DNA from: an uncultured Verrucomicrobia subdivision 3 bacterium
GTDB taxonomy: Bacteria > Verrucomicrobiota > Verrucomicrobiae > Limisphaerales > CAMLLE01
DNA: 8,615 nucleotides
Direction: 5' to 3'
NCBI GenBank assembly: GCA_946480555.1
Contig: CAMLLE010000097.1
Span: forward strand, 1-8,615
Each line of letters begins with the position of its first letter. Position 1 is the first letter of the stretch. Positions 188 to 8,615 of this stretch are shown one piece after another. The notes under the pieces were generated by a model. It did no database searches and was not told where the DNA came from. It saw only the letters and a program-made list of their open reading frames with translations. The translations under genes were made by a program, and so were the position numbers.

Positions 188-623
188 TCAGGCGGCAGGG
201 CGAATGAAGCGAATGGAGGTTCGCGCTTTCAGTGCAAGCGGCTGAGCGAGCCAGCCCTGTCTTGAACGTTGCGCGTTGAATGTTCTCCCTTTCTCGATTG
301 GGGCGGGCCTTGGAGAGAATCCTGTTCGAATCGCGCAGCGCCCTCCAATCGCGGCTGTTCGTCGTGCAACGAATGGTATTCTCCGGGAGTTCCGGAACAG
401 CTATCCCGCCAGTGTGCCGACGCCGCTGACCGCCCCACGCGCTCATCAGTCAATGTGCCGCGTGGACAACCACGCGAGGAGTCTTCAACGCTTTGTCGTT
501 TCAATCGACGACTTGATTTCTGCCTGATCCCTTTCGAAAGTGGCGCGCAACTGTGGTCCATTCAGGGATCGCCGTCGCCCGGCAAAAGTCGCTGGGCGCT
601 GCCGCGATCTTCTGGAACAAACT
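188..623. other. Gap of about 435 bases with no supported gene
   Basis: Open frames exist here on both strands, but their translations are arginine-, serine- and proline-rich, overlap each other and show no recognisable domain, so none is called. No T-tract terminator, tRNA or strong sigma-70 promoter could be recognised by eye. The promoter of the downstream esterase gene presumably lies in the right-hand part. A tRNA-like TTCGAAT heptamer occurs near 329-335, without a matching stem. Confidence 0.5.
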
Positions 624-2561
624 ATGATTTCTAAAATGCTTCGTCTGCTTGTCGGCGTGGTCGCGTCAGCCAATCTGGCGCACGCCGCCACCGTTTCAAC
701 GCTGCCATTCGTCAGCCCAATGTTCGGCCATCACATGATGCTGCAACGTGACAAGACGAACACGATTTGGGGCTGGTGTGCGCCGGGAACTGAAGTGCGT
801 GTGGAGATCGACGGACGCGCAACTTCGACCAGGGCAGGTGCCGATGGCCGATGGCAGGTAAAGCTGCGGCCGCCCGCGGCGGGTGGACCTTACTCGCTCA
901 ATATCGAGGGCCCGGAAAAGGTGTCCTTCACAAACGTGCTCGTCGGGGATGTCTGGCTTTGCGGTGGACAATCGAACATGGAATGGCCCCTGTCGCAGGC
1001 GCGCAACAGCGAAGCGGAAGTCAAAGCGGCAGACCATCCGTCGATTCGCATTTTCAATGTGAAGCAACAGCCGGGCTACGCGCCGAAGTCGCTGGTCGAA
1101 GGCGCGTGGCGGGTTTGCTCGCCGAAGAGCGTGACGGAAGACGGCGGCGTTTCGGCCGTGGGATATTTCTATGCGCGCAAGATTCAAAGCGCGACGAATG
1201 TTCCAATTGGTTTGATCAAGGATTGCTGGGGTGGCACGCCCGCAGAAAGCTGGGCCAGTATGGAGGCATTGCGTCCGTTCAATGAATTCGACGCCGGTTT
1301 GAAAGAGGTGCAGCGGCTCCACGCGAAAGGCGCGCCGGAATACGGAAACTTCATCACGCACTGGCATGAAGAATACGATCCAGGCCAGAAGGCATTCTGG
1401 CTCGGCGCCAACGTCAACGATGTCGATTGGAAGGCGGTTTCACTCAAGGACGGCTTCCGCGAGCTGGGTGTGCCCGAGATGCCGGCGGTTTGTTATTTCC
1501 GCAAAACCGTGGTGCTGCCCGATCCCATTCCGGCCGGCCGCGCGCGGCTCCATTTGGGCATCGTCGAGCGAATGGACACCGTCCACGTGAACGGCCATTG
1601 GGTTGGTGCGAGCGCCTGGGTGGAGAATCCGCGCGCCTACGGCATCAACAACAACGTGCTCAAACCCGGTACCAACGTGATCGCCATTCGCGTTCTCAAA
1701 ACCCGGCCGGATGGCGGTTTTCGTTCCCCGGCGGAGGAACTCAAACTTGTGCTGGGCGACAAAACGGAGATTCCCCTGGCGAATGACTGGAAGGGAAAAC
1801 TCAGTCTCGATGCGAAGCCGCCGCATCCGTTGCCAGCCGGATTCGAAAACTGGCCCACCATGCCGGCAGTGCTGTACAACGGCATGATTGCACCAGTGGC
1901 GCCATTGGGGATTTGCGGCGCAATCTGGTACCAGGGCGAATCGAATGTCGGGCGCGACGACCAGTATCGCCGCCTGCTTCCCGCGATGATTCAGAGCTGG
2001 CGCAGCGCGTTTCAGCAGGGTGACTTTCCGTTTTACATCGTGAGCCTGGCAGCGTTTCAACCACGCAAGGATCAGCCCGGGGATGACGAGTGGGCGGAGT
2101 TGCGCGAGGCGCAGGCGTTCGTGGCGCGCACAGTTCCCAACTCCGGACTCGCCATCACGATCGATGTCGGCGATGCGAATGACATTCATCCGAAAGACAA
2201 AAAGGAAGTGGGCGAACGGCTGGCGCTGCAGGCGTTGAGCAAATATTACGGCCAGAACGTGGTGGCTTCCGGACCGACACTCGCGAAGGTGGAGAAAACT
2301 TCTGGCGGGCTGAAACTCACGTTCGATCACGCGGACGGCGGATTAGTGGTGAAGGGGGAAAAACTCGGCGAGTTTTCAATTGCGGGCGAAGATCGCAAAT
2401 GGTCGTGGGCGGAAGCGAAGATTGAAGGTGACACGATCGTCGTTTCATCGCCCGAAGTGCCGAATCCCGCCTACGTCCGCTACGCCTGGCAATCGAATCC
2501 GCAGGCGACATTGTTCAATGGCGCGGGACTGCCCGCGGTGCCGTTTCGAACAGACCAATAA
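624..2561 (+). CDS. Secreted sialate O-acetylesterase-type SGNH hydrolase (SASA family)
   Basis: This is a 645-residue carbohydrate esterase, probably removing O-acetyl groups from sialic acid or other acetylated glycans outside the cytoplasm. Residues 1-22 form a signal peptide (MISKMLRLLVGVVASANLAHAA, cut near AHA-A). The SGNH signatures are complete: block I GGQSNMEW at 114-121 with nucleophile Ser117; the oxyanion-hole glycines in CWGGTP at 201-206; WYQGESN at 435-441; and the terminal DANDIHP at 517-523 with Asp520 and catalytic His522. Residues about 255-385 split the hydrolase fold and resemble a beta-galactosidase-type jelly roll (LHLGIVERMDTVHVNGHW), an arrangement usual for this family. 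The frame is open upstream to an ATG at 540, but 624 is chosen because it puts the signal peptide at the N-terminus; ATG 636 is a less likely alternative. The Shine-Dalgarno is weak. The true substrate may be hemicellulose acetyl groups instead of sialate. It appears to be monocistronic. Confidence 0.93.
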   Translation: MISKMLRLLVGVVASANLAHAATVSTLPFVSPMFGHHMMLQRDKTNTIWGWCAPGTEVRVEIDGRATSTRAGADGRWQVKLRPPAAGGPYSLNIEGPEKVSFTNVLVGDVWLCGGQSNMEWPLSQARNSEAEVKAADHPSIRIFNVKQQPGYAPKSLVEGAWRVCSPKSVTEDGGVSAVGYFYARKIQSATNVPIGLIKDCWGGTPAESWASMEALRPFNEFDAGLKEVQRLHAKGAPEYGNFITHWHEEYDPGQKAFWLGANVNDVDWKAVSLKDGFRELGVPEMPAVCYFRKTVVLPDPIPAGRARLHLGIVERMDTVHVNGHWVGASAWVENPRAYGINNNVLKPGTNVIAIRVLKTRPDGGFRSPAEELKLVLGDKTEIPLANDWKGKLSLDAKPPHPLPAGFENWPTMPAVLYNGMIAPVAPLGICGAIWYQGESNVGRDDQYRRLLPAMIQSWRSAFQQGDFPFYIVSLAAFQPRKDQPGDDEWAELREAQAFVARTVPNSGLAITIDVGDANDIHPKDKKEVGERLALQALSKYYGQNVVASGPTLAKVEKTSGGLKLTFDHADGGLVVKGEKLGEFSIAGEDRKWSWAEAKIEGDTIVVSSPEVPNPAYVRYAWQSNPQATLFNGAGLPAVPFRTDQ

Positions 2562-3211: not shown

Positions 3212-3261
3212 AGCACGGGCCCGATCCGGCCATGGCCGCGGCCCCGTTGCGGGTCAAGTTT

Positions 3262-5595
3262 ATGAGCACGCCATTGAATGTTCTCATGGTGGAAGATTCC
3301 GAGCACGATGCCCGCCTGGTCGTGAAGGAACTGCGGCGTGGTGACTTTGAACCGGAGGTGGAACGCGTCATGACGCTGGCTGCGTTGGAGGAGGCGTTGC
3401 GGCGCGGGGGGTGGGACATCATCCTTTCCGATTACAACCTGCCATCATTCACGGGGCTCGACGCGGTGAAGCTCGTTCGCGGACGCGGGCTCGATCTGCC
3501 GTTCATTCTGATCTCCGGTGCCATCGGCGAGGAAACGGCGGTCGCAGCCATGAAAGCCGGCGCGCACGATTACCTGATGAAGGACAGCCTGCACCGGCTT
3601 GTTCCGGCGGTGAAACGTGAACTGGCCGAAGCCCGCGTCCGGCAGGAACACCGCCGCGCTGAACAGCAGTTGCGCCAATTGTCCAGCGCCGTGAAGCAGA
3701 GCCCGTCGGCCATCATGATCACCGACGAGAAAGGGGACATCCAATACGTGAATCCGAAGTTCATCGAGCTGACGGGTTACACGTTTGAAGAAGTGGTCGG
3801 CAGGAATCCGCGGTTTCTGAAATCAGGCGACACGCCGGTGGAAGCCTATCAGAAACTCTGGAGCACCATCTCCCGGGGCAAGGACTGGCACGGCGAATTC
3901 CACAACCGCAAGAAGGACGGGACTCTCTATTGGGAGACGGCATCGATATCTCCGATTCGCGATGCGAACGGGAGCATCACCCATTTCGTCGCGGTGAAGG
4001 AGGACATCACCGAACGTAAGCTCACCCAGGAACGGATGCGTGAACAGGCGGAGTTGCTGGATCAGACCCAGGACGCAATCCTGGTCCTGGGGCTGAACCA
4101 GCAGCTCCGCTACGCGAACCGCAGCGCAGAGCGGGCTTACGGCATCCCGGCAGAACAGCTCGCAAAGCAGAATCCTGCGGCGTTGCTCTTTCATGACGAT
4201 GCGGATCACTTTGCCGGGATTTGCCATAAAACGCTGGAGAACGGCAACTGGTCCGGCGAGATCAGTTACACCAGCCGGATGGGAATGAAGCGCGTGGTGT
4301 TCAGCCGCTGGACGCTCGTTCATAACTCGGACGGCCGTCCATCTTCGTTCCTGGTCGTGAACACCGACGTGACCGAGCAAAAACGGCTGGAGGAGCAGTT
4401 CCTGCGCGTCCAACGAATGGAAAGCATTGGAACGCTTGCCAGCGGCGTGGCCCATGACCTGAACAACATCCTCTCGCCGATTCTGATGGCGGCCGATTTG
4501 TTGCGGCCGCTGGCAAAGCAGGAGGAAGACAAGGAAATCATCTCCATGCTGGAACGCGGCGCTCGACGGGCGTCGGACATCGTGCGGCAGTTGCTGACGT
4601 TCGGTCGTGGAGTCGAAGGCAAACGTGTCGCGCTGCAACCACGCACATTGCTTGGTGAAATGGCGAAGGTTGTTCGCGAAACTTTTCCCAAGAACCTGAC
4701 GTTCAGCCAGCATTTCCCTGAAGATCTTTGGGCCATCTTTGCCGATCCCACGCAGATTCATCAGGTGCTGCTGAACCTCTGCGTGAATGCCCGCGACGCC
4801 ATGCCGCGCGGCGGAGAACTGGTCATCGCTGCGGAAAATCTGCTGGTCGATGCCGCCTACGCCGCGACAAATTCCGAAGTGAAGCCCGGACCCTATGTCG
4901 TCCTGCAAGTGAGTGACACGGGCTCGGGTATTCCACCGGAGATCATGCACAAGATCTTTGACCCGTTCTTCACCACCAAGGAACTGGGGAAGGGCACTGG
5001 CCTGGGACTCTCCACCGTTTTGGGAATCGTGAAAAGCCACGGCGGATTCCTGCAGGTCAACAGCCGCGTCGGCGAAGGCACGCAATTCAAGGTGTATATC
5101 CCCGCGGTGGTTCAGAATGGCGACCTGAAGGCGGACCTGTCGAATGATCCGTTGCCGCAAGGACGCGGCGAACTCGTCTTGATCGTCGATGACGAGGAAT
5201 CGATCCGGACGGTGGCGCAACACGCGCTTGCGAAAAATGGTTATCGCGTGATCACCGCTGCCGATGGAGCGGAGGCGCTGCTGGTTTACAGCCGGTCGAA
5301 AGAGCCGATCAGTGCGGTGGTGACGGACATGTTGATGCCGATCATGGATGGCGGGACGCTGATCAAGGCATTGCGGCGTCATTCGACCGAGTTGCGTTTG
5401 ATCGCGATGAGCGGGCTTTCCGAACAGGAGGCTGTCGCGAAAGACGCCGGTTTGGGCGCTGGCCTGTTCCTCACCAAGCCATTCAATGCGGAACGGCTGG
5501 TGATTGCGTTGCATAAAATCCTGGCGGAACGAGCTGCCGATGCGCCGTTGATGACGAATCCGGCAGGGGTGGAGGGAACGGGTGTTGGCCGATGA
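3262..5595 (+). CDS. Cytosolic hybrid histidine kinase, REC-PAS-PAS-HisKA-HATPase-REC
   Basis: This is a 777-residue soluble hybrid sensor kinase without membrane segments. An N-terminal receiver (about 5-122) has Glu11/Asp12, acceptor Asp57, Ser85 and Lys107. PAS1 (about 142-255) contains GRNPRFLKSG at 180-189 and an NRKKDGTLYWE stretch, resembling NifL/Aer-type PAS domains. Pro183 stands where LOV domains carry the flavin-reactive Cys, so it is not LOV. PAS2 spans about 262-376. The HisKA phosphoacceptor is His398 in GVAHDLNN. The ATPase domain shows the N box (NLCVNARDA, Asn505/Asn509), DTGSGIP at 552-558, DPFFTTK at 567-573 and GKGTGLGLS at 576-584. The C-terminal receiver (about 637-755) has Asp643/Asp644, acceptor Asp689, Ser717 and Lys739. 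The architecture resembles CckA-like kinases. ATG 3262 is preferred over ATG 3232, which would add ten residues before the receiver. No Hpt domain is visible, so relay to a separate protein is inferred. It probably forms an operon with the preceding receiver gene. Confidence 0.95.
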   Translation: MSTPLNVLMVEDSEHDARLVVKELRRGDFEPEVERVMTLAALEEALRRGGWDIILSDYNLPSFTGLDAVKLVRGRGLDLPFILISGAIGEETAVAAMKAGAHDYLMKDSLHRLVPAVKRELAEARVRQEHRRAEQQLRQLSSAVKQSPSAIMITDEKGDIQYVNPKFIELTGYTFEEVVGRNPRFLKSGDTPVEAYQKLWSTISRGKDWHGEFHNRKKDGTLYWETASISPIRDANGSITHFVAVKEDITERKLTQERMREQAELLDQTQDAILVLGLNQQLRYANRSAERAYGIPAEQLAKQNPAALLFHDDADHFAGICHKTLENGNWSGEISYTSRMGMKRVVFSRWTLVHNSDGRPSSFLVVNTDVTEQKRLEEQFLRVQRMESIGTLASGVAHDLNNILSPILMAADLLRPLAKQEEDKEIISMLERGARRASDIVRQLLTFGRGVEGKRVALQPRTLLGEMAKVVRETFPKNLTFSQHFPEDLWAIFADPTQIHQVLLNLCVNARDAMPRGGELVIAAENLLVDAAYAATNSEVKPGPYVVLQVSDTGSGIPPEIMHKIFDPFFTTKELGKGTGLGLSTVLGIVKSHGGFLQVNSRVGEGTQFKVYIPAVVQNGDLKADLSNDPLPQGRGELVLIVDDEESIRTVAQHALAKNGYRVITAADGAEALLVYSRSKEPISAVVTDMLMPIMDGGTLIKALRRHSTELRLIAMSGLSEQEAVAKDAGLGAGLFLTKPFNAERLVIALHKILAERAADAPLMTNPAGVEGTGVGR

Positions 5596-5621
5596 ATCCG
5601 TGGAAGCATCGCTGAACCGAT

Positions 5622-6041
5622 CTACTCAGCCTTCTCGTTTGGATCGGGACGTGCCGAATTCCTTGGAAGCTTGGATCCGTATTTCCGATCGAGCGCAGCT
5701 TCGACACATTCGATCAACGCCTCGGTACTGATTGGCTTCGCCAGTGTGAACACGGCACCAAGCAGGCGCGCCTCTCGAAACATCCGGAGCGGCGATTCAT
5801 TCCCGCTGATGACGATGAACGGCATCGCGAGATTTTCCTTCAAGGCGAAGCGCAACAGCTCGATGCCATCCGGATCCGGCATGTTGACGTCGGTGATGAC
5901 CAGGTCGAAGGGCTCGGTGCCGAGCCGCTGGATCGCCTCCTGGCTGGAGGTCGTCGCGAGCACTTCATAGCCCGCGGTTTTGAGGGTGCGCTTCAGTGCG
6001 AGCACCATCATCGAGCAGTCATCAATAACCAGAATTTTCAC
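5622..6041 (-). CDS. CheY-like single-domain response regulator
   Basis: This is a 139-residue receiver with no output domain. Key residues are Asp7/Asp8 in ILVIDDCS, acceptor Asp51 in LVITDVNMPDPDG, Ser79 in IVISGNES, and Lys102 in TLAKPIS. The receiver ends near residue 118 and is followed by a charged, probably disordered tail of about 20 residues. The start codon is GTG at 6041-6039, with a GGGAG on the minus strand at 6057-6053 about 11 bases upstream; starting there gives the canonical first beta strand. It converges on the hybrid kinase, with only 26 bases between the two stop codons, and is divergent from the carbonic anhydrase-chemoreceptor gene. It could receive phosphate from the neighbouring hybrid kinase, or act as a CheY-type output for the receptor; neither is shown by the sequence. 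Confidence 0.92.
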   Translation of the reverse strand: MKILVIDDCSMMVLALKRTLKTAGYEVLATTSSQEAIQRLGTEPFDLVITDVNMPDPDGIELLRFALKENLAMPFIVISGNESPLRMFREARLLGAVFTLAKPISTEALIECVEAALDRKYGSKLPRNSARPDPNEKAE

Positions 6042-6454
6042 CGCAGAACTTTCTCCCGCATCGCGGCGGGACTGTTCGCCCGCTCGTTGACGGGCAGGCG
6101 TGGATTAACAACGGACGAATCGCGCCGGAGCTTAATGGAAATATCCTGACTTCCTGGGCGGGTTTACCCGGGCCCGGCCGGCGTGGAACCTGATGCGGGA
6201 AGGCCAAGATCCGTTCACCGGAATCCTGAACGGAATTCGGGTTTTTCCGATTCAAGCCCGGGTGTCAGACGCCGATGTCCGGTTGTTGCAGGGTTTCGGT
6301 CTGGTGAATCGCACGTCAGGATGCTGTTATCCGCGTGGGTTGGCCTGAGTTTCCCTTGCCGGAAAAATGCAAAAGCAAACGAACAGTGGCGTGAGAAGCG
6401 GGCAGTTCCCGTCCAGTTGCCTGCTGTCAATCCGCTGATCCAATCCCCACTCGC
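6042..6454. other. Divergent intergenic region with several inverted repeats
   Basis: About 410 bases lie between the start of the minus-strand receiver gene and the start of the plus-strand fusion gene, so promoters for both should be here. Short open frames on either strand have no recognisable domain and are not called. Notable structures are overlapping GC-rich stems at 6066-6095, a CGGGT-TT-ACCCG palindrome at 6159-6170, and a 7-bp inverted repeat at 6210-6234. No convincing sigma-70 or sigma-54 promoter could be identified by eye, and no strong Shine-Dalgarno precedes ATG 6455. Confidence 0.5.
6210..6234. promoter_or_regulatory. 7-bp perfect inverted repeat with 11-base spacer, possible operator
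   Basis: TCCGTTC at 6210-6216 and its reverse complement GAACGGA at 6228-6234 flank an 11-base spacer. The half-site centres are 18 bases apart, close to two helical turns, which would suit a dimeric regulator. The GTTC/GAAC core recalls the half-sites of LexA-type boxes, but the spacing is far too long for those. A run of five T at 6242-6246 follows about seven bases later, so a weak plus-strand terminator is an alternative, although no plus-strand gene ends just upstream. Confidence 0.3.
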
Positions 6455-8615
6455 ATGAAAGCCCGCATTGTCGTTCTCGCATCCATCCTCCTCATTGCCC
6501 TTTGCAGCGGCGCAGCCCCGGCCACCGAACCGGTCCCAAATGCTGAGGACGGATTGAAGCGATTGGCCGCCGGCAACGAACGTTATGTCGCGGGCAAGCC
6601 TGCCCATCCCAATCAGGATCCTGAGCGCCGCGCCGTCGTCGCCAAAGGTCAGACGCCATTTGCCACCATTCTCGCCTGTTCCGATTCCCGGGTGCCGGTG
6701 GAGGTGCTCTTCGATCAGGGCATCGGCGATCTGTTCGTGGTGCGCGTGGCGGGAAACGTCTCGGACACGGACGAAATTGGAACCATTGAATATGGCGTGG
6801 GCCATCTGAACACGCCGCTCCTGGTGGTGCTTGGTCATAGCAGCTGCGGCGCGGTGAAAGCCGTGGTGGAAGGCGCGCAGGTGCATGGCAGCATTCCGGC
6901 GCTGGTGGATAACATTGTCCCGGCCGTGGCAAACGTCCGCAGTGCGAAACCAGGCGCAGCCGGCGCGGAACTGGTCGGCGAAGCAGTGAAGGCGAATGTC
7001 TGGACGTCGATTGATGACCTCTTCAAGAACAGTCCTGAAGTCCGCGAACTGGTCCATGCCGGCAAGCTTACCGTGGTGGGAGGCGTGTACAACCTGGAAT
7101 CGGGAGAGGTTGCCTGGCTGGGCAAACATCCGGAGCAACCGCGGTTGCTGGCTTACACCAGCGGTGCGGGGCACGGCGAGGCACATGGCGATTCGGGCGC
7201 GCACGCACCGGCCCACGCTGGTTCTGCGGCCGGCCACGGCACGGCGGCTTTACACGCAGCCGGTGAAACGGCCGCACATGCCGGGTCGCACACCAAGGAA
7301 ATCATCTTCTCTTTGGTGGCCGCGGCGTTGTTCAGCGGCATTGCGTTCGTGGTATTTCGCGTCACGCGGCAGAGCTCCATTCAGGTGCGCATCCTTTCGA
7401 ATTCGGCCGTGCTGCTGCTGATCCTGCTCGGGCTCGGCGGATTCGTGTATTTCGAATTTCACCGGATTGGACGCCAGCTGGACGCCACGGCCAACGATGC
7501 GTTGCCGATTCTGATCACGCTTTCCGACGCTGAAACGAAAGTCGTGAAGCAGGCGTTGTTTCTGGAGAAATTTGCGCTGACGAAAGATCCGGCGCTGGTC
7601 GCCGATTTCGACCGGTTCGCCAAGGAGGTGGAGGATGAACTGGCGGTGGCCGAGGCTGAGATTCGGCAGGCCATTCAGCACGCGATCAGTTCGGAGCAGA
7701 AGAAGGCGTTTGAGAAAATGCTGGGAGAAGTGGCGCGATTAAGCAAAGAACACCGCGAGTTCGATCTGGACGGCGACGAATACCTGGCGGCGATTAAAGC
7801 CGGCCAGCGCGCCCGCGCCGCGGAACTCGCCCGGAAGATCGCCCACGAGGAACTGCAGATGATCTCCGAGTTCACGAACATTGTGGCTGAGATCAAATCG
7901 GAAACCTTGCACGACGCCCAGCTTGCCACGTCGATGGAGAAATCCGGCCAGATCATGGTGGTGGCGGTGAGCCTGTGTGGATTGCTGGTGGGCGTGATGT
8001 TTGCGTGGTTCACCGCGCGAAACATCAACCGGCTGCTGCGTTCCGTCGCGGGCAGCTTGAACGAAGGTGCGAGCCAGACCGCTTCCGCAGCAGGACAGGT
8101 TTCATCCGCATCACAAACCCTGGCCGAAGGCGCCAGCGAACAGGCGGCTTCGCTCGAAGAAACCAGCGCGTCGATCGAGGAGCTTTCCAGCATCACCAGA
8201 CGCAATGCCGAAAACGCGCAACGCGCCAACGATCTCGCCCGGCAGACGCGCAGCGCCGCAGACACGGGCGCGGCGGACATGGACGCGATGAACCAGGCCA
8301 TGGAAGCCATCAAAGCTTCCAGCGACGACATCGCCAAGATCATCAAGACGATCGACGAGATTGCGTTCCAGACCAACATTCTTGCCCTGAACGCCGCGGT
8401 CGAAGCCGCGCGCGCCGGTGAAGCGGGAATGGGATTTGCCGTGGTGGCCGACGAAGTGCGGAACCTCGCGCAACGTTGCGCGGATTCCGCCAAGGAAACC
8501 GCATCGAAGATTGAAGGCGCGATTACGCGCACGTCGCAAGGGGTCGAATTGAGTGCGAAGGTTTCGCAAGGCTTGCAGGAAATTGTTTCCAAGATCCGGC
8601 AGGTCGATGAACTGG
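6455..8615 (+). CDS. Exported beta-carbonic anhydrase fused to a methyl-accepting chemotaxis receptor (3' end beyond window)
   Basis: The frame stays open for 720 codons to the window edge. Residues 1-24 are a signal peptide ([20 protein letters not shown], cut near APA-T). Residues about 30-236 are a beta-class carbonic anhydrase with zinc ligands Cys75, His128 and Cys131 (ACSDSR and GHSSCGA) and the Asp77/Arg79 dyad, so it should hydrate CO2 in the periplasm. A His-rich linker (237-280) leads to TM1 (about 283-301), a short Arg-containing loop, TM2 (about 316-333), a roughly 160-residue helical extracytoplasmic region, and TM3 (about 499-519). The MCP coiled coil follows, with a methylation-type site AASLEETSA (Glu568/Glu569) and the conserved hairpin [19 protein letters not shown] (638-656) through [10 protein letters not shown]. 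No full HAMP is seen. Arginines in the TM1-TM2 loop and after TM3 fit periplasmic enzyme and sensor with cytoplasmic signalling. ATG 6455 is set by the signal peptide; no Shine-Dalgarno is obvious. Domain calls are secure; sensing of CO2, bicarbonate or pH is inferred. Confidence 0.93.

What the first reader, a model, noticed from the sequence alone, without database searches (positions are those of the whole stretch)
6455..8615. Carbonic anhydrase-chemoreceptor fusion: a possible CO2/bicarbonate/pH taxis receptor with a built-in enzyme
One uninterrupted frame joins a signal peptide, an intact beta-carbonic anhydrase (Cys75, Asp77, Arg79, His128, Cys131) and a complete-looking transmembrane MCP with sensor helices, methylation site and signalling hairpin tip. 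Chemoreceptors normally carry binding domains such as 4HB, Cache or PAS, and beta-carbonic anhydrases are normally stand-alone or fused to SulP-type transporters. I do not recall a described enzyme-MCP fusion of this kind, but could not search. The inferred model is that the enzyme converts CO2 at the outer face of the membrane, and that the resulting HCO3- or H+, or occupancy of the active site, is read by the attached helical sensor and passed to CheA. COS or CS2 hydrolysis by the same fold is an alternative.
Basis: partly seen in the sequence, partly recalled or inferred. Interest (0 to 1): 0.88.

Follow-up and report, generated by a model that had tools for sequence, protein, structure and literature searches.

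The report
Chemoreceptor with built-in carbonic anhydrase
A bacterial swimming-control receptor carries a complete carbonic anhydrase, probably outside the cell membrane, apparently so that the cell can read carbon dioxide, bicarbonate or the acid they form; many relatives share the design and our paper searches found no description of it.

Summary
The fusion is real. Window 6455-8614 (+), cut by the window end, is one frame: signal-like N-terminus, beta-carbonic anhydrase (Pro_CA, 8e-41), flexible His-rich linker, an extra membrane helix, then a chemoreceptor with a helical sensor and no HAMP hit (MCPsignal, 7e-38). Relatives confirm it: 97 of 218 pooled proteins carry both domains, one 70% identical through the junction. 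Zinc ligands and the Asp-Arg pair are invariant in 52 of 52 aligned rows of this layout (4 rows lack the receptor domain), and 117 of 117 enzyme domains in receptor-linked proteins keep the motif. Other layouts: two or three anhydrase domains before the receptor (17 proteins), and an anhydrase between the two membrane helices of an otherwise ordinary receptor (28). In two genomes the gene sits with cheW and cheA. Best reading: a periplasmic enzyme that rapidly interconverts CO2 and HCO3-/H+ beside an attached sensor, giving CO2, bicarbonate or pH taxis. Location, activity in the fusion, ligand and coupling are inferred. Ten paper searches listed no description; databases auto-annotate some members. 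New variant of a known kind.

The parts
6455..8614 (+). carbonic anhydrase-chemoreceptor gene, 3' end cut by the window
   Evidence: one frame of 720 codons; Pro_CA and MCPsignal
6455..6526 (+). signal-peptide-like N-terminus (residues 1-24, end point approximate)
   Evidence: hydrophobic 5-23; N-terminal hydrophobic stretch in 51 of 52 aligned rows; no signal-peptide predictor was available
6527..7159 (+). beta-carbonic anhydrase domain (residues 25-235, ends approximate)
   Evidence: Pfam 70-219; model pLDDT 71-97 per block of ten residues; best fold 2a5v, TM 0.84 by target length
6677..6691 (+). Cys75, Asp77, Arg79: zinc ligand and Asp-Arg pair
   Evidence: sequence; invariant in 52 of 52 rows
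6836..6847 (+). His128 and Cys131: zinc ligands
   Evidence: sequence; invariant in 52 of 52 rows
7160..7288 (+). flexible His-rich linker (residues 236-278)
   Evidence: 8 His in 50 residues as cut; pLDDT below 50 at 239-278; no Lys or Arg in residues 239-280
7289..7366 (+). extra membrane helix A (residues 279-304)
   Evidence: hydropathy 283-301; helix in model
7379..7444 (+). receptor membrane helix B (residues 309-330)
   Evidence: hydropathy 309-327; continuous helix 309-376 in model
7445..7951 (+). four-helix sensor module (residues 331-499)
   Evidence: helices to 376, 379-408, 413-448 and from 452, pLDDT about 90-97 per block; 4HB_MCP_1 E 5e-5, below cut-off
7952..8008 (+). receptor membrane helix C (residues 500-518)
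   Evidence: hydropathy
8009..8614 (+). cytoplasmic chemoreceptor signalling region, no HAMP hit, cut by the window end
   Evidence: MCPsignal 592-719; lower model confidence here, blocks of 40-80
5622..6041 (-). single-domain response regulator, divergent neighbour
   Evidence: PF00072 E 1.2e-21
3232..5595 (+). hybrid PAS sensor kinase upstream
   Evidence: PF00512, PF02518, PAS and two PF00072 stretches; REC-kinase-fusion order also in L086
2720..3211 (+). response regulator upstream of the kinase
   Evidence: PF00072 E 3.3e-22

Best explanation
It is a transmembrane chemoreceptor whose exported part carries a working beta-carbonic anhydrase. The enzyme sits in the periplasm, tethered by a flexible His-rich linker and a membrane helix to a four-helix sensor; it speeds CO2 + H2O to HCO3- + H+ (or the reverse) next to that sensor, so the receptor can report CO2, bicarbonate or local pH within the seconds that chemotaxis needs; the signal passes through helix C to the canonical signalling hairpin, CheW and CheA. 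Shown here: domain order, conservation of the active site, conservation of the fusion, che and flagellar genes in the carriers tested. Inferred: export, activity in the fusion, the ligand, and how the signal enters the sensor.
For: Both domains in one frame and in 97 of 218 pooled proteins (the pool was gathered by similarity to such proteins). Active-site residues invariant in 52 of 52 rows of layout A, 48 of them with the receptor domain, and in 31 of 31 rows of the inserted layout, 28 with it; motif complete in 117 of 117 receptor-linked enzyme domains. Charge pattern fits enzyme and sensor outside: the loop between helices A and B is richer in Lys/Arg than the linker in 52 of 52 rows (medians 0.231 and 0.019), and an N-terminal hydrophobic stretch occurs in 51 of 52. 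In the inserted layout the enzyme lies between TM1 and TM2 of an otherwise ordinary receptor, normally the exported ligand-sensing position (recalled). Chemotaxis context: cheW starts 4 bases after the CA-MCP gene in L075, with cheA nearby; cheW, REC, CA-MCP and cheA in L085. CheA and FlhA families match in 9 of 9 genomes tested, of which 6 hold a CA-MCP frame without a break. In L019 a separate CA gene starts 14 bases after an MCP gene.
Against: No experiment. Of 29 loci found in genome contigs with the enzyme half, only 3 (L005, L008, L020) encode enzyme and receptor in one frame; of the other 26 only 2 have an MCP frame in the held stretch, L019 and the decayed L001. So this enzyme family often lives without a receptor and may only use it as an anchor. 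L002 and P0076 keep enzyme, sensor and membrane helices but end before the signalling domain. The same family occurs in tandem without a receptor and joined to porin-like barrels. Different layout-A members have different helical sensors, so no one sensor sequence goes with the enzyme. The models do not place enzyme against sensor (pTM 0.40 and 0.39).
Confidence: 0.6

Rival explanations
1. The carbonic anhydrase is a carbon or pH housekeeping enzyme that merely uses the receptor as a membrane or polar anchor; the helical module senses an unrelated ligand.
For: Linker predicted disordered; in genome contigs 26 of 29 relatives are not fused to a receptor in one frame; the family also occurs in tandem and joined to porin-like barrels; L002 and P0076 lack the output domain.
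Against: Anchoring needs one helix, yet receptor fronts and output domains are kept; the inserted layout puts the enzyme between TM1 and TM2 of a receptor; two carriers place the gene beside cheW and cheA.
Confidence: 0.22
2. The domain is used as a binding sensor (bicarbonate, CO2, zinc or another anion in the active site), with occupancy or an oligomer change moving the receptor; turnover is incidental.
For: Receptors and beta-CAs are both oligomeric as families (recalled); the inserted layout places the enzyme inside the sensor.
Against: The Asp-Arg pair, which serves catalysis (recalled), is invariant in 52 of 52 layout-A rows; in both models stretches with pLDDT below 50 lie beside the CA.
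Confidence: 0.12
3. The enzyme hydrolyses COS or CS2, so the receptor follows sulfur gases.
For: A COS hydrolase shares the family and matches weakly (3vqj, E 9.9e-6).
Against: Far closer to a carbonic anhydrase, 2a5v/1ym3 (E 1.5e-41), which is also best by fold.
Confidence: 0.04
4. Assembly or annotation artefact joining two genes.
For: The window is cut at its end; the origin of the window is not told; many relatives are from metagenomes.
Against: 97 of 218 pooled proteins in several layouts; members stand on long contigs, e.g. P0047 on 5,446,402 bases and P0031 on 1,631,895 bases.
Confidence: 0.01

Closest known systems
Transmembrane methyl-accepting chemotaxis proteins with a four-helix sensor (4HB_MCP_1, PF12729)
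   Same: membrane helix, helical module, membrane helix, canonical MCP signalling domain
   Different: a carbonic anhydrase and an extra membrane helix precede it; no HAMP found in the window protein
Beta-carbonic anhydrase Rv3588c (PDB 2a5v, 1ym3)
   Same: closest solved sequence and fold, about 40% identity
   Different: stand-alone enzyme; here exported-looking and fused to a receptor
H. [quoted passage not shown]
   Same: a chemoreceptor reported for bicarbonate
   Different: the term 'carbonic anhydrase' does not occur in that paper's text; it says the sensing mechanism was not further characterised and direct bicarbonate sensing is unclear
Carbonic anhydrase 4 on mammalian sour taste cells (passage of the review PMC7503421)
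   Same: an enzyme on the cell surface suggested to take part in extracellular acidification when carbonated liquid is tasted: the same logic
   Different: separate protein, different enzyme class (alpha, recalled), no chemoreceptor fusion
SulP transporter-carbonic anhydrase fusions (recalled; not examined here)
   Same: beta-CA joined to a membrane protein
   Different: transport, not signalling

Membership tests
beta-carbonic anhydrase | Pro_CA fold over the full profile | tested here: met
   PF00484 positions 1-156 of 156, E 8.4e-41; fold match 2a5v, TM 0.84 by target length
beta-carbonic anhydrase | two Cys and one His as zinc ligands plus Asp-Arg pair (roles recalled) | tested here: met
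   C75, D77, R79, H128, C131 invariant in 52 of 52 rows
beta-carbonic anhydrase | CO2 hydratase activity | not testable with these tools
   no assay
NCBIfam NF011765 carbonic anhydrase family protein | score over curated cut-off | tested here: not met
   141.5 bits against 221 for the window, 149.7 for P0064; P0012, P0021 and P0003 pass with two domains
methyl-accepting chemotaxis protein | MCPsignal domain over curated cut-off | tested here: met
   130.5 bits against 34.6, although cut by the window end
methyl-accepting chemotaxis protein | cheA and a motility apparatus in the carrier genome | tested here: inconclusive
   9 of 9 genomes tested, 6 of them with an unbroken fusion frame, match PF02895 and PF00771; the window's own genome is not held
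methyl-accepting chemotaxis protein | methylation and control of CheA | not testable with these tools
   needs experiments
HAMP-containing MCP | HAMP after the last membrane helix | tested here: not met
   no PF00672 hit at E 0.001 in the window protein; some tandem relatives have it (P0010, P0027, P0031, P0042)
4HB_MCP_1 sensor | profile score over cut-off | tested here: inconclusive
   23.3 bits against 27; the model shows four helices
COS hydrolase | closer to COS hydrolases than to carbonic anhydrases | tested here: not met
   E 9.9e-6 against 1.5e-41 among solved structures

The most novel reading that the evidence does not exclude
Bacteria in several phyla have built enzyme-gated chemoreceptors: a periplasmic carbonic anhydrase covalently held at the sensor brings slow CO2 hydration onto the time scale of run-and-tumble decisions, so CO2 is read through its products. 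Links between this CA family and receptors arose or were lost more than once and in different topologies, with His-rich tethers that may act as proton relays or zinc stores.
Probability: 0.42. Interest if true: 0.87.

Novelty: new variant of a known kind. Interest (0 to 1): 0.74.

Why it matters
How bacteria sense CO2 and bicarbonate for navigation is poorly defined; for H. pylori TlpA it is called unclear whether bicarbonate is sensed directly (passage in PMC5245789). A receptor with a conserved enzyme at its input offers a direct genetic test, because one catalytic residue should decide the response. It would add an enzyme to the kinds of chemoreceptor input and parallels the surface carbonic anhydrase suggested for mammalian carbonation taste (passage in PMC7503421).

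Tried and rejected
Whole genome of the window: not held. Viral collection: 7 stretches matched a pattern, none a relative. RNA families: no match at gathering score in the window. Promoter-like and terminator-like sites at 5500-6600: none and one, no more than in shuffles. One origin for layouts A and C cannot be excluded from the CA tree (AU p 0.60, the held tree even scored higher); one clade of all receptor-linked CA domains is rejected (p 8e-8), but tandem domains, a quick tree and the chosen rows make this less than proof of independent fusions. The protein search with the sensor alone returned only P0061 and missed P0063 and P0066, which one search shows to be relatives, so it cannot show absence. 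The sensor profile matched 0 of 288 genomes, but carriers of a fusion with another sensor did not match either (G004; five more), so this says little about an exclusive link. A 1937-aa frame in G674 has a CA domain only near its end (residues 1715-1917) behind a noise-like front and was judged spurious by eye. Fold searches listed only carbonic anhydrases in the 50 rows shown and did not identify the sensor. PMC11218372, opened for domain fusions, held nothing relevant in the passages found. Paper listings: six searches aimed at the fusion and four at context; two searches showed 15 of 404 and 10 of 37 papers; three papers were opened for passages (PMC11218372, PMC5245789, PMC7503421), the others were seen as listings only.

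Full report
What is there. Window 6455-8614 (+) is one open frame of 720 codons that runs off the end. Pfam finds a full carbonic anhydrase (Pro_CA, residues 70-219, E 8.4e-41) and the first 142 of 172 positions of the chemoreceptor signalling domain (residues 592-719, E 7.3e-38); 4HB_MCP_1 matches 308-475 at E 5e-5 but under its cut-off, and no HAMP is found at E 0.001. Hydrophobic stretches lie at 5-23, 283-301, 309-327 and 500-518. An AlphaFold2 model from 52 sequences (mean pLDDT 79.7, pTM 0.40) gives a confident anhydrase, a stretch below pLDDT 50 at 239-278, a membrane helix 279-304, then helices 309-376, 379-408, 413-448 and 452-565, that is, a four-helix module whose first and last helices continue into the membrane stretches; the signalling region is modelled less surely. 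The low pTM means that the placing of enzyme against sensor is not predicted. The best solved relative of the enzyme is Rv3588c, by sequence (E 1.5e-41) and by fold (TM 0.84 by target length).

It is not chance or an artefact. A search with residues 20-320 against proteins of receptor-like length gave 455 hits, 120 listed, of which 55 carry both domains; a second search with an inserted-layout relative gave 628, again 120 listed. Of the pooled 218 proteins, 97 have both a CA and an MCP domain by profiles built here, 73 CA only and 48 MCP only. P0061 is 70% identical to the window protein in the alignment. These sets were gathered by similarity and cut at 120 rows, so the fractions are not natural frequencies.

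Layouts. Of the 97, 80 have one CA domain, 15 two and 2 three. (A) One CA, linker, helix A, then a receptor: the window and most single-CA relatives outside layout C, about 780-880 aa with a few of 1000-1170; names, where given, are Verrucomicrobiota or groups within it (P0075, P0100, P0104, P0115, P0116; placement of some names recalled). (B) Two or three CA domains before the receptor, 1129-1525 aa, some with HAMP, including a Zixibacteria and a Planctomycetota record (P0027, P0042). (C) CA between TM1 and TM2 of an otherwise ordinary receptor: P0121 (L020, Phycisphaerae) and 27 others, 28 in all; names given include Phycisphaerae, Tepidisphaeraceae, Planctomycetaceae and Hydrogenedentes. 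In the model of P0121 (mean pLDDT 73.8, pTM 0.39) the CA at about 207-412 is flanked by stretches below pLDDT 50 (174-195, 420-430) and by helices on both sides. (D) Separate genes: in L019 (Magnetococcales) a CA gene starts 14 bases after an MCP stop codon.

How common is the fusion among relatives in genomes? Of 29 loci from a scan of one genome per species, 3 encode both domains in one frame (L005, L008, L020; L008 is cut at the contig edge); of the other 26, two have an MCP frame in the held stretch, L019 and L001, whose gene is decayed. The scan used six short patterns and reports close relatives only. So unfused relatives outnumber fusions there.

Active site. In layout A, C75, D77, S78, R79, H128 and C131 are invariant in 52 of 52 rows, 4 of which (P0072, P0076, P0097, P0120) lack a receptor-domain match; in layout C the same positions are invariant in 31 of 31, 3 of which (P0142, P0143, P0154) lack it. 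The motif C.D.R then H..C is complete in 117 of 117 CA domains of receptor-linked proteins, window included, and in 140 of 141 others. This argues for retained catalysis rather than a dead scaffold. A broken copy exists: in L001 the Arg of the pair and one zinc Cys are replaced and the frame is interrupted.

Topology. In the 52 rows of layout A the loop between helices A and B has a median Lys+Arg fraction of 0.231 against 0.019 in the linker, higher in 52 of 52; an N-terminal hydrophobic stretch occurs in 51 of 52. By the positive-inside rule (recalled) this puts enzyme, linker and four-helix module outside and the signalling domain inside. No dedicated predictor was available.

Linker. In 71 layout A/B proteins the linker after the last CA has a median 7.5% His (0 to 17.8%; linkers over 15 residues) against 2.4% over all pooled proteins; the window has 8 His in 50 residues. 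Of 27 layout-C proteins in that call, 12 were printed, and His stands beside the CA on at least one side in those. Roles such as proton relay or zinc store are speculation. For mechanism it matters that both layouts seem to tether the enzyme flexibly, which favours a local product effect or docking over a rigid lever.

Sensor. The window-type sensor is shared with strong scores by the window, P0061, P0063, P0066, P0076 and P0086 and by L002, and after profile iteration by four tandem-CA receptors (P0010, P0027, P0031, P0042); L029, also a CA protein, matches at 1e-9; CA-less receptors match only at E 3e-6 or worse. The profile matched 0 of 288 genomes of the phylum of G004; in control genome G002 it matched once, in the CA protein, and in 5 other fusion carriers not at all. 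So strong matches were seen only beside the enzyme, but the protein pool was chosen by the enzyme, and other layout-A members carry a different helical region.

Distribution. In 288 genomes of the phylum of G004 (the genome of L007 and L008, an Opitutaceae MAG by title), 37 have a CA match at E 1e-30 or better; 4 have a checked fusion (G004, G055, G179, G191), and one further long frame (G244, 779 aa) was not examined. In 150 genomes of the family group of G179, which includes G004, 12 match at 1e-50 and 6 have the fusion (those four plus G372 and G416). In 294 genomes of the phylum of G005, 14 match at 1e-45 and 2 were seen to have the fusion (G005 layout C; G606 CA before a receptor with a longer helical region). 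CheA (PF02895) and FlhA (PF00771) match in 9 of 9 genomes tested: six with an unbroken fusion frame (G004, G005, G006, G055, G179, G191), one with the form lacking the output domain (G002), one with the broken gene (G001) and one with separate genes (G007).

Surroundings. In L075 (G179): Cache-type MCP, CA-MCP, cheW 4 bases on, hybrid kinase, and cheA and an HDOD gene on the other strand. In L085 (G372): cheW, REC, CA-MCP, hybrid kinase; cheA and HDOD on the other strand. In L086 (G416): REC, hybrid kinase, CA-MCP, as in the window, where a divergent REC gene lies between kinase and fusion. L077 and L008 have HDOD genes nearby and no cheA or cheW among the neighbours scanned.

History. In a quick tree of 123 chosen CA domains, layout A (with P0076) falls in one starred group (96) with two stand-alone Opitutaceae CAs nested in it, and layout C is one starred group (96). 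Holding A and C together is not rejected (p 0.60); holding all receptor-linked domains together is (p 8e-8). So linkage to receptors changed more than once, by gain or loss, and the two topologies need at least one rearrangement.

How it most likely works. Uncatalysed CO2 hydration takes many seconds, while chemotaxis compares concentrations over a few seconds (both recalled). An enzyme held at the receptor would let HCO3- or H+ follow CO2 fast enough to be read by the attached four-helix module, which then acts on the hairpin, CheW and CheA. Domain order and conservation are shown; export, activity, ligand and coupling are inferred. The main rival is an enzyme that only uses the receptor as an anchor; the forms without an output domain (L002, P0076), the porin-linked and tandem forms and the many unfused relatives keep that open, and its odds were raised by 0.02 when the count was added.

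Known or new. Six full-text searches aimed at the fusion and four on context listed no paper whose title or abstract start describes a CA-MCP fusion; the library lacks most subscription papers, and the listed papers were not opened except three. Some database entries already carry automatic names such as 'methyl-accepting chemotaxis protein/carbonic anhydrase', so the architecture is visible in databases. It belongs to the MCP and beta-CA families by their defining domains and is a new variant by combination.

Noticed in passing
P0021, P0022, P0035, P0036, P0043, P0044, P0051, P0054, P0056: Two carbonic anhydrase domains joined to a Porin_O_P (PF07396) barrel: a possible enzyme-coupled outer-membrane channel.
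   Followed up: partly
L029:3-1919: A contig-edge frame runs from a carbonic anhydrase remnant through two membrane-like stretches and part of a window-type sensor, then a stretch that looks out of frame, into a CheB methylesterase (PF01339, E 5.6e-53), followed by a REC-like gene. It is either a rearranged or broken CA-receptor gene beside cheB, or a novel CA-sensor-CheB fusion.
   Followed up: partly
P0012, L006:2809-4371 and other 450-550 aa hits: Tandem carbonic anhydrases without a receptor, several with His-rich linkers, are frequent among the listed relatives.
   Followed up: partly
L002:3980-5641 and P0076: Carbonic anhydrase, membrane helices and the window-type sensor are kept but the protein ends before the signalling domain.
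   Followed up: partly
L001:7992-10529: Broken copy: active-site residues replaced and frame interrupted. The MAG's label as Akkermansia muciniphila looks doubtful, since its genome matches FlhA and CheA and that species is non-motile (recalled).
   Followed up: partly
P0202: A 995-aa protein from the dinoflagellate Effrenium voratum with four carbonic anhydrase domains.
   Followed up: no
L077:5279-6112, L008:2891-3754, L075:16669-17544, L085:13938-14816: HDOD-domain genes lie near the fusion or its cheA in four carriers.
   Followed up: no
window 540-2561: SASA-type carbohydrate esterase with a weak GH2 sugar-binding match, at the other end of the window.
   Followed up: no
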